A DNA stretch of 64,000 nt from Ochromonas danica. Taxonomy: Eukaryota; Sar; Chrysophyceae; Chromulinales; Chromulinaceae. Shown in pieces: positions 47,575 to 50,568 of this stretch (within the stretch, counting starts at the first letter, position 1; the number at the start of each line of letters is the position of its first letter). Below the pieces are notes generated by a model. That model did not search any database and had not been told where the DNA came from. It worked only from the letters and a program-made list of their open reading frames with translations. Position numbers and translations under genes: made by a program. The stretch is taken from NCBI GenBank assembly GCA_015146655.1, contig VKHL01000011.1, forward strand, positions 5,819 through 69,818. The letters run 5' to 3'.

Positions 47575-50568
47575 CTAGTTGTAGAGATCGTCGGAGCTGT
47601 CCTCGTCGCCTGCTGCCTCTCCTTCGCCCTGTTGGTCGAAGCTAAAGTTCGCAGCCCCTGCAGCAGTGGCATCAGCCTTCATCTTGGCAGAGAATGCTTC
47701 ATACTGACGAATATCCTTCTCGCTCACTGATCGTCTAGCACGAGACATGGCTTCCTCAAAGTGATCCTTGCGAATGTAGGGCACGGGATCCTCCGCGGGT
47801 TCATCGGGATCGATCTCACCAGCAGCAATCTTCTTCGCTCTCTCAATATCTGCATTGACAGCCTCACGAATAGCGTTCTTGGCAGCTCGTTGACAGATTT
47901 CTGTGATATCTGCACCAGAGAATCCTTCCGTAGCAGCAGAGAGCTGGTCAATATCGACAGCAGGTTCCACAGGAGACTTGCGCAAATTGGCCCTGAAGAT
48001 GCTCTTTCTGGAGAGCAAGTCGGGAAGAGGGATGTAAATGAGCTGATCAAGACGGCCAGGACGAGTGACGGCATTATCCAAGATGTCAGGTCTGTTGGTG
48101 GCGCCGATGACGAAGACACTCTTCTTGGCACCAACACCATCAATCTCTGTCAAGATCTGATTGATGACGCGATCACCAGCCTCAGAAGAACCTCCTTGTC
48201 CACCACCACGAGACTTCGCAATCGAGTCCATTTCATCAAAGAAGAGAATACAAGGAGCAGCAGCACGAGCTTTATCGAATAGATCACGAATGTTGGCTTC
48301 TGACTCACCAAACCACATGCTGAGCAACTCGGGTCCCTTGATGGAGATGAAGTTCGCTCCGCATTCATTGGCAATAGCCTTGGCCAACAGTGTCTTACCA
48401 CAACCAGGAGGACCATAGAAAAGCACACCCTTAGAAGCTTGCATGCCAAACTTCTCGAACTTGTCGGCGTGCTCAAGAGGATACTGAATGGTCTCATAGA
48501 GCTCACGCTTGACATCCTCTAAGCCACCAACATCTTCCCAAGTGACATTAGGCACCTCAACAACATTCTCTCTCAGAGCAGATGGGTTGGTGACGGTCAA
48601 GGCATGATTGAAATGTTCCGAGGTGATCTCAATGGAGTCTAAGATCTCTGCGGGGATCTTCTCAGCATCAACATCAATAAGATGCATCTTCTCACGGATA
48701 GCCTGGAAGGCAGCCTCCATGCACAATTGAGACAAGTCAGCACCGACGTAACCGTGAGTATCTTTTGCTACTTGTTCCAAGTTGCAATCCTTGGCAAGCT
48801 TCATGTTGCGAGTCTTGATGCGCAAAACATCGAGACGTCCCTCCTCGTCGGGAACACCAATGTCCATTTCTCTGTCAAAGCGACCAAAGCGGCGGAGTGC
48901 AGGGTCAATTACATTAGGACGGTTGGTGGCGGCGATAACCACAACGTTGGAGTTGGCTTTAATACCATCCATGAGAGTGAGAAGCTGGGAGACGATACGG
49001 CGCTCAACTTCTCCACCAGCCTTGTCTCTCTTTGGTGCAATGGAATCAATCTCATCAATGAAGATAATAGCAGGAGAGTTCTTCTCAGCTTGCTCAAAGG
49101 TCTTGCGAAGGTTAGATTCCGACTCACCAGCCAGTTTTGACATAATCTCAGGACCATTCAGAACATGGAAGCTTGCACCTGTTTCTGAGGCGACAGCTCG
49201 GGCGATCAAGGTCTTTCCTGAACCAGGAGGACCATACATAAGCACTCCCTTGGGAGGTGGAATGCCAACGGTACGAAAGACTTGAGGATGACGAAGAGGT
49301 AACTCCACAAGCTCGCGAATCATGGCAAGCTGGCGGTTGCAACCACCAACATCATCGTATCCCACTTCATCAAAGCGATCATCTTCCTCGCGGCTAATGG
49401 CGCCGTTGGACTCATAATCGATGGTGGTTTGATTGGTAATCAAACCATACTCGAGCTCATCACCTTCACTTCCTTCGATGGACATGACTTTGAACTCAAC
49501 AGCTCTCATACCTCCACGAACAACAAAGCTATCACCAACTCTCAGAGGGCGATTATTCTCCTTGAAGTATGGCTTAATATAGACTTCAAAGATATCCCCC
49601 GTAAGACCTTCAATGGTGTCCTCGAAAGGAGCCACGACAACATTCTTGGCAGCTTTAATGTCTTCCAACAAACTGATCGACACCACATCTCCCAAGCGCA
49701 CCCTAACAAGACCAACCAATTCACAGGAATAAGACCTACATAGCCATCCATCTATTAGATAGAAGCTTACCGTAAGTTTGATCGCACCACTTTAGACATT
49801 TGAATGCGAGTACTCTCAACATTCTCATCAGAGACTACCACACCCACAGTAGTCTTCCTCTTCTTACCCTTGATCAAAATGGTATCACCACTAAAGATCT
49901 TGAGTTCTTCGAGTTTATCGGGATGAATAGCAATAGTGGAATGATCATCAGAAGTGGCATCATCTACAAGAAGTCCATTGGGTGTTTGCTTCTTTTGCAA
50001 GATTGCAGTGGCTAAATCAACTTTCCCCTATAGAAAAAAAATCAACCAAACCATAACATAACACAACACCCGGTGTAAATACAATGACATAGTGTGTATA
50101 TGACAAAGAGAGAGCATGGCTCACATTAGCAGAGAGGTCATCAGCTTGTGCAAGAGGAACCTCTTCTTTCTGATCATCATCCTCCTCTTCTACCACAACT
50201 TCCTTTGCTTTGGACTTCTTGTTAGCAGCAGTAGCAGTAGCAGTAGTAGCAGTAGCGGGGCTATTGTTACTCTGTTTGGTAGAAGAAGGTGATTTCTTTC
50301 CTTTCTTACTAGAAGATGCCTTCTTTCCTAAATGAAATAATAGTGATTGTTCATAGATATGATAAGAAAGACAAGAAAAGTGAAAATCATTTTGCAGGAA
50401 ATTCTCTCTACCTTTTGCTCCACCTCGCAGAAGGAGGACCTCAGCTAATTTGCTGGACTTTTCTTTCCATGCATTAGCTAAAAAGCGAAATTTTGGTAGT
50501 TGTGGAACAGTTGCTACAACATAGAAGAGGTAGCAAGAAAGTGCAACAAGTAAGAATGCCACCTTCAT
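47575..50568 (-). CDS. CDC48: Cdc48/p97 AAA ATPase with an N-terminal secretory leader (candidate periplastidial sCdc48)
   Basis: Exons 50412-50568, 50125-50327, 49771-50027 and 47575-49702 keep phase and give 914 residues, about 105 more than p97. Exon 1 encodes a signal-like segment ([19 protein letters not shown]) and a basic stretch. Exon 2 encodes a Lys/Ser/Thr- then Glu-rich linker. The canonical protein then begins ([20 protein letters not shown]). D1 has GPPGSGKT and [10 protein letters not shown]2 has GPPGCGKT and ILFFDEMDS; Arg-finger regions are intact, and the C-terminus ends DDLYN as in host p97. Red complex plastid algae carry a second Cdc48 in the SELMA preprotein translocon between the plastid membranes. 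The leader lacks an aromatic +1, which fits that compartment. ER location is the alternative. Confidence 0.85.

What the first reader, a model, noticed from the sequence alone, without database searches (positions are those of the whole stretch)
47575..50568. Cdc48 with a spliced-on secretory leader: candidate SELMA/periplastidial Cdc48
Exons 1 and 2 add a signal peptide and a charged linker to an otherwise complete p97. In algae with red complex plastids a symbiont-derived Cdc48 works in the ERAD-like SELMA translocon. The probable cleavage site (YVVA/TVPQ) is not followed by an aromatic residue, matching periplastidial rather than stromal targeting. The DDLYN C-terminus is more host-like than expected, which makes its origin interesting.
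Basis: partly seen in the sequence, partly recalled or inferred. Interest (0 to 1): 0.7.

Follow-up and report, generated by a model that had tools for sequence, protein, structure and literature searches.

The report
Plastid-import Cdc48 motor with ubiquitin-like leader
This is a second copy of a common protein-pulling motor, re-addressed to the space around an alga's chloroplast where it probably hauls proteins in; its address tag, like those of several partner proteins, carries the same few letters as ubiquitin's tail, which suggests a testable way in which such tags are cut off.

Summary
The minus-strand gene 50568-47575 has four exons (914 aa): signal peptide, leader and charged linker in exons 1-2, then a complete p97/Cdc48. 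No Met lies between M1 and M197, so no downstream ATG keeps a whole N domain. The 31-Mb genome has one other full-length Cdc48, without leader (host type). It is 75% and 73% identical to plant and animal Cdc48 but 65% to the window protein, which is therefore no recent host duplicate. Red-algal origin could not be tested here.

The genome also encodes leader-bearing Der1 (two), a probable Ufd1, ubiquitin and nine 20S proteasome subunits. The best reading is a SELMA/periplastidial sCdc48, a new member of a known kind. DDLYN is not host-like: it is the HbYX motif (plant CDC48A ends DDDDLYN; the host copy here ends EEDLYS). No second sCdc48 was found, whereas ochrophytes usually have two.

Unexpected: the leaders of sCdc48, both sDer1 and the symbiont ubiquitin carry L-x-[L/I]-R-G-G, like ubiquitin's tail; in the ubiquitin it sits directly before Met1. 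sUfd1 and the proteasome leaders lack it. This suggests, unproven, that a deubiquitinase removes these leaders; Toxoplasma PUBL data argue against it.

The parts
50412..50568 (-). Exon 1: start codon, signal peptide, transit-peptide-like region ending in LLLRGG-AKG
   Evidence: open frame from ATG, donor AAG^GTAGAG
50512..50568 (-). Signal peptide [19 protein letters not shown] (probable cleavage before TVPQ; +1 is Thr)
   Evidence: hydropathy; cleavage site read by eye (-3/-1 rule, recalled)
50419..50436 (-). LLLRGG (residues 45-50), resembles the ubiquitin C-terminus LRLRGG; L-x-[LI]-RGG is also in the leaders of both sDer1 and of the symbiont ubiquitin
50328..50411 (-). Intron 1, 84 nt, phase 1
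50125..50327 (-). Exon 2: Lys/Ser-rich then acidic linker
50028..50124 (-). Intron 2, 97 nt, phase 0
49771..50027 (-). Exon 3: most of the CDC48_N domain
49703..49770 (-). Intron 3, 68 nt, phase 2 (not at the position or phase of the host gene's 68-nt intron)
47575..49702 (-). Exon 4: rest of N domain, D1 and D2 AAA rings, tail, stop
47578..47586 (-). C-terminal HbYX motif LYN (protein ends SSDDLYN)
   Evidence: motif as described in PMC5070193 (section 16)

Best explanation
The gene encodes sCdc48, the ATP-driven motor of the SELMA translocon of a red-derived complex plastid. Shown by sequence: a signal peptide and leader joined by introns to a complete p97 with intact Walker motifs; a separate leaderless host Cdc48; leader-bearing partners (two Der1, a probable Ufd1, ubiquitin) in the same genome. 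Inferred: the signal peptide takes it into the ER, and the leader with non-aromatic +1 takes it across the periplastidial membrane and leaves it in the periplastidial compartment (PPC), where as a hexamer it pulls ubiquitylated preproteins through the sDer1 pore. Inferred: because it keeps the HbYX end and the genome encodes signal-peptide-bearing 20S proteasome subunits, the same motor may also feed a PPC 20S proteasome. No second sCdc48 was found, so one protein may do the two jobs that other ochrophytes may divide between two.
For: Gene model and domains. CDC48_N was found at two places in 31.2 Mb, this gene and the leaderless C121 gene; of 57 matches to the core only these two span it. Identities: window-host 64.7%, window-plant 66.5%, window-animal 66.5%, host-plant 75.4%, host-animal 73.1%. 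Four Der1 loci, two with leaders; a leader-bearing Ufd1-like gene; a leader-bearing ubiquitin. The 34 proteasome matches merge by eye into 28 gene loci, 26 of them read; 10 of the 26 (9 genes, one near-identical pair) begin with a signal-peptide-like stretch, and the 9 genes match the Proteasome family. 47 LHC-family matches; one LHC leader with Phe at +1. Literature: SELMA Cdc48 form one clade nested in red algae (PMC5070193, passages); most species with two sCdc48 keep HbYX in one, and heterokont 20S subunits reach the PPC with signal peptides (same paper, section 16); PPC proteins lack the aromatic +1 residue (PMC12136025, passages).
Against: Red-algal ancestry was not tested: the tree (two own, two PDB and 5 of the 17 prokaryotic loci) leaves the four eukaryotic rows unresolved. 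No transcripts or localisation. The leader's first 15 residues have no acidic and its first three no charged residue, which PMC12136025 (passages) reports for plastid rather than PPC leaders. The organism was not identified. The absence of a second sCdc48 rests on a 337-contig assembly of unknown completeness and on searches that score only the best candidates. The Ufd1 match is modest (44.6 and 37.5 bits) and its start codon is ambiguous. In L043 leader and Der1 domain lie in neighbouring frames and are taken to be joined by an intron.
Confidence: 0.88

Rival explanations
1. A recent duplicate of the host's cytosolic Cdc48 that acquired a leader (host-derived PPC Cdc48).
For: The core is complete and keeps the HbYX end, as cytosolic Cdc48 does.
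Against: It is less like the host copy (64.7%) than like the plant or animal chain (66.5% each), while the host copy is 75.4% and 73.1% like them; its one intron inside the core differs from the host's in position and phase.
Confidence: 0.05
2. A secretory or ER-lumenal Cdc48: the signal peptide leads simply to the ER or outside.
For: Only a signal peptide plus an unclassified leader can be read from the sequence.
Against: It ends DDLYN, not in an ER retention signal (recalled: KDEL-like); leader-bearing Der1, Ufd1-like, ubiquitin and proteasome genes exist, as expected for a PPC.
Confidence: 0.03
3. The protein is sent on to the plastid stroma.
For: Residues 20-50 have net positive charge, 6 basic against 2 acidic; the first 15 have no acidic and the first three no charged residue, as described for plastid leaders (PMC12136025, passages).
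Against: The +1 residue is Thr; an LHC leader of the same genome has Phe at +1. SELMA parts are known from the periplastidial membrane and PPC (recalled, and PMC5756292 passages).
Confidence: 0.04

Closest known systems
sCdc48-1/sCdc48-2 of the SELMA translocon (diatoms, haptophytes, cryptophytes)
   Same: Nucleus-encoded Cdc48 with signal peptide and PPC-type leader, next to a leaderless host Cdc48; partners sDer1, probable sUfd1 and sUbi present
   Different: Only one sCdc48 found here (two are usual in heterokonts and haptophytes, PMC5070193 section 16; P. tricornutum has two and Nannochloropsis none, PMC6610115 passages); it has the HbYX end
CDC48AP of the Toxoplasma apicoplast
   Same: PPC-located second Cdc48, motor of import (PMC5487736, passages)
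   Different: Here in a photosynthetic alga with signal-peptide-bearing proteasome subunits; none are reported for apicomplexans (PMC5070193, section 16)
Cytosolic Cdc48/p97 (animal p97, plant CDC48A, this genome's C121 gene)
   Same: N-D1-D2 architecture, Walker motifs, HbYX end
   Different: Leader and linker of about 120 residues; about 65% identity
PUBL, plastid ubiquitin-like protein of Toxoplasma
   Same: RGG directly before the ubiquitin domain, as in this genome's sUbi; its authors call it a potential deubiquitinase site
   Different: In PUBL no cleavage there was seen and the RGG was dispensable; here L-x-[LI]-RGG also occurs in the leaders of sCdc48 and both sDer1

Membership tests
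SELMA sCdc48 | Complete Cdc48 core (N, D1, D2) with intact ATPase motifs | tested here: met
SELMA sCdc48 | N-terminal signal peptide followed by a leader | tested here: met
   (hydropathy and reading by eye only; no SignalP available)
SELMA sCdc48 | Non-aromatic residue after signal-peptide cleavage | tested here: met
   Thr20, if cleavage is at YVVA|T (by eye); LHC control has Phe
SELMA sCdc48 | PPC-type charge distribution in the leader (acidic residues also in its first 15 positions): a tendency reported for diatom PPC proteins, not a strict requirement | tested here: not met
   no acidic residue in residues 20-34 (sequence); criterion from PMC12136025 passages
SELMA sCdc48 | Separate leaderless host Cdc48 in the genome | tested here: met
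SELMA sCdc48 | Other leader-bearing SELMA parts in the genome | tested here: met
   sDer1 x2, probable sUfd1, sUbi; E1 N-termini could not be read; Npl4, E2, E3 not searched
SELMA sCdc48 | Core nested in red-algal Cdc48 | not testable with these tools
   no red-algal sequence available; argues only against a recent host duplicate
SELMA sCdc48 | Located in the periplastidial compartment | not testable with these tools
   needs localisation
HbYX-bearing sCdc48 type (of the two types in PMC5070193) | Hydrophobic-Tyr-X C-terminus | tested here: met
   ends LYN

The most novel reading that the evidence does not exclude
The leaders of several SELMA proteins in this alga carry a ubiquitin-tail mimic (L-x-[L/I]-R-G-G) and are cut there by a periplastidial deubiquitinase. 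That enzyme would then be the peptidase that removes transit-peptide-like leaders in the PPC, and it would mature symbiont ubiquitin, sCdc48 and sDer1 by the same chemistry.
Probability: 0.3. Interest if true: 0.75.

Novelty: new member of a known kind. Interest (0 to 1): 0.5.

Why it matters
The gene adds one well-supported sCdc48, with several of its partners, in an alga where one HbYX-bearing motor may serve both import and a periplastidial 20S proteasome. The more consequential lead is the LRGG in the leaders. PPC proteins are thought to lose their leaders to a 'TPL peptidase' (PMC5756292, passage), for which the passages I saw name no enzyme. A ubiquitin-tail cut site shared by ubiquitin, Der1 and Cdc48 would name a candidate enzyme class and can be tested by N-terminal proteomics.

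Tried and rejected
A second, diverged sCdc48: C86 (L038) looks AFG2/SPATA5-like and C4 (L039) NVL-like by eye (family traits recalled). The two matches on C193 are not in the order of a Cdc48 (fetched as L044, not read). The other matches were not read one by one. CDC48_N was found only in the two genes named.

Red-algal origin by tree: viral contigs gave no relative; genome contigs gave 17 loci, all from prokaryotic records, of which 5 were used as outgroup. The tree left the eukaryotic rows open.

Naming the organism: the 18S search did not complete. A weak silicon-transporter match (46.1 bits; a bacterial control also gave a match, below the cut-off) is compatible with, but no proof of, an ochrophyte.

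LRGG as a genome-wide excess: rejected. The DNA pattern built from the three first leaders gave 13 hits against 11 for its reversed control. Of the 13, three are those seeds (window gene, two sDer1), one is the end of a ubiquitin gene on C3 (place), two have a signal peptide directly upstream (L075, L077), five show none (L076, L078, L079, L080; window 28499) and two (C28, C203) were not read. LRGG as a general PPC mark: rejected; sUfd1 and the proteasome loci lack it in their leaders. The prediction that Omp85 carries it (note) could not be tested: the one match lies at a contig end and its N-terminus could not be fetched. E1 N-termini likewise.

Felsner 2011 and Stork 2012 are not held.

Full report
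What is there. On the minus strand, 50568-47575, lies a four-exon gene for a 914-residue protein. Exon 1 encodes [19 protein letters not shown] followed by [34 protein letters not shown]. Exon 2 encodes a Lys/Ser-rich and then acidic linker. Exons 3 and 4 encode a whole p97: CDC48_N, CDC48_2 and two AAA stretches above Pfam cut-offs, with both sets of Walker motifs. All three introns are GT..AG. There is no Met between M1 and M197, so a downstream ATG start cannot give a leaderless protein with a whole N domain. The splice sites and the cleavage site are read by eye; no transcript data and no signal-peptide program were available.

Is it a second Cdc48? In the window's own genome (31.19 Mb, 337 contigs) CDC48_N was found at two places: this gene and C121. 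The C121 gene starts MADKKVEIN without a leader, has a 68-nt intron early in its N domain and ends EEDLYS. A search with the window core gave 57 matches, of which only these two span the core; two further two-ring candidates look AFG2-like and NVL-like by eye, and the rest were not read one by one. The window core is 64.7% identical to the host copy and 66.5% to each of two PDB chains named CDC48 homolog A and transitional ER ATPase (taken as Arabidopsis and human, species recalled), whereas the host copy is 75.4% and 73.1% identical to these. So it is not a recent duplicate of the host gene. A tree of 9 rows, 5 of them prokaryotic (of 17 found), leaves the four eukaryotic rows unresolved. No red-algal Cdc48 was available, so the published nesting of SELMA Cdc48 in red algae (PMC5070193, passages; PMC3971594, passages) could not be tested for this gene.

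The cast around it. Four Der1 loci exist. L040 and L041 start MADYHPS and MADTLQE; L042 and L043 carry a signal peptide and leader. In L042 leader and Der1 share one frame; in L043 they lie in neighbouring frames, taken to be joined by an intron. Of three UFD1_N1 loci, one (L083) reads MNCIGFFLISWLFVAHG|NPLLK near its start (start codon ambiguous, modest scores). A ubiquitin gene (L107) has a leader: its ubiquitin is 54 of 76 identical to the ubiquitin in the window, keeps Lys48, loses Lys63, and bears a 13-residue tail after RLRGG. Of the 33 ubiquitin-family matches only this one and the window's were read. The 34 proteasome matches (lower bounds) merge by eye into 28 gene loci; 26 were read: 10 (9 genes, one near-identical pair) begin with a signal-peptide-like stretch by eye, one (L049) is ambiguous, one is HslV-like, and 14 show none in the exon seen. 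The nine genes match the Proteasome family. There are 47 LHC-family matches; of two LHC N-termini fetched, one could be read, ALFHA|FRLSP, the plastid type. So the genome belongs to a photosynthetic alga with a complex plastid. PPC 20S subunits imported by signal peptides are described for plastid-bearing heterokonts (PMC5070193, section 16). The species was not identified.

Where it goes. The probable +1 residue is Thr, which fits the PPC rule (PMC12136025, passages). By two further tendencies in the same passages the leader looks like a plastid one: no acidic residue in its first 15 positions and no charge in its first three (sequence). The PPC reading rests on the +1 residue and on the identity of the protein as a SELMA motor.

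The C-terminus. It is the HbYX motif. [quoted passage not shown] The plant chain ends DDDDLYN. Here only one sCdc48 was found, with HbYX, next to signal-peptide-bearing 20S subunits; one motor may serve both import and degradation. This is inference and depends on assembly completeness.

The leader motif. While reading the two leader-bearing Der1 I saw that their leaders hold LLSLRGG-ANKKKKKSSSSSKK and KLLSIRGG-AGKSG, close to [19 protein letters not shown] of the window gene (noted). A later and separate search for ubiquitin showed that the symbiont ubiquitin leader ends DKVLALRGG directly before Met1. So 4 of the 5 SELMA-type leaders that I could read carry L-x-[LI]-R-G-G, the pattern of ubiquitin's own tail LRLRGG; the fifth, sUfd1, does not. 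Among the 30 proteasome loci [LIVMF]RGG occurs in six, in no case in a leader. In held sequence (272,230 distinct ORF residues) the strict pattern occurs 11 times against 1.15 expected after shuffling residues within ORFs; of the 11, four come from loci fetched because of the pattern and two are true ubiquitin tails, so the ratio is inflated. A DNA pattern search of the genome gave 13 hits against 11 for the reversed control, so there is no genome-wide excess; of the 10 non-seed hits, two sit directly after a signal peptide (L075, a small Lys-rich protein; L077, carrier-like by eye, whose leader has Phe at +1).

What it may mean. Deubiquitinases cut ubiquitin precursors after RGG (PMC5487736, section 7). 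A symbiont ubiquitin made as leader-LALRGG-ubiquitin-RGG-tail needs such a cut at its C-terminus to expose its diglycine, so a PPC deubiquitinase is expected; diatoms have one, ptDUP (PMC5756292, passage). The economical guess is that it also removes the leaders of ubiquitin, Der1 and Cdc48. Precedents: Toxoplasma PUBL has an RGG just before its ubiquitin domain, called a potential deubiquitinase site (PMC5487736, passages and section 7), and the Omp85 of P. tricornutum and C. merolae share an N-terminal LRGGG motif (PMC2222254, passage). Against: PUBL was seen only as an uncut band and its upstream RGG was dispensable; sUfd1 and the proteasome subunits lack the motif; L077 has a plastid-type leader; VVRGG also occurs inside the folded N domain of this Cdc48, so RGG alone means little. 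My literature searches with LRGG or RGG (listings of at most 20) brought no other paper on such leaders, but the main SELMA papers are not in the library, so I do not claim that it is unpublished.

Verdict. The finding is real and its interpretation is supported: a SELMA sCdc48, a new member of a known kind. The leader motif is the part worth following.

Noticed in passing
L107 (G000:C21:56490-57060, minus): Symbiont ubiquitin with signal peptide, leader ending LALRGG directly before Met1, Lys48 kept, Lys63 lost and a C-terminal tail IVRFFSFVRQLFH.
   Followed up: partly
L051, L055, L060/L061, L062, L064, L067, L070, L073, L074: A set of alpha- and beta-type 20S proteasome subunits with signal-peptide-like starts; in L070 the mature domain seems to start right at the cleavage site. 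L049 is ambiguous.
   Followed up: partly
L075 (G000:C177:29300-30400, minus): Small Lys-rich protein with signal peptide and two RGG (HPRGG, FLIRGGAKK); no Pfam match; possible new periplastidial or SELMA protein.
   Followed up: no
L077 (G000:C75:67200-68300, minus): Signal peptide, Phe at +1, then LLLLRGGAND and a first exon that looks by eye like a mitochondrial-type carrier; no Pfam match in the exon seen.
   Followed up: no
window 15057-17498 (+): Protease that looks CtpA-like by eye, with leader MKKWVLIVLILFLLYLDLENA|WKVQQ, aromatic +1, so plastid type by the same rule.
   Followed up: no
window about 21035-21250 (-): Ubiquitin continued in frame by a short C-terminal extension (possibly a fusion; next exon not traced).
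   Followed up: no
window 28499-28524 (+): TVLHLRGGAKG in a short plus-strand frame just upstream of a minus-strand gene; very like the window leader motif but without a visible signal peptide, probably chance.
   Followed up: partly
L061 (G000:C30:109380 region): Near-identical second copy of the proteasome alpha gene of L060 about 4 kb away, running into a stretch of N.
   Followed up: no
L086 (G000:C5:250847 region): One of four loci matching the ubiquitin E1 family has a very acidic low-complexity C-terminal part; possible sUba1, N-terminus not seen.
   Followed up: no
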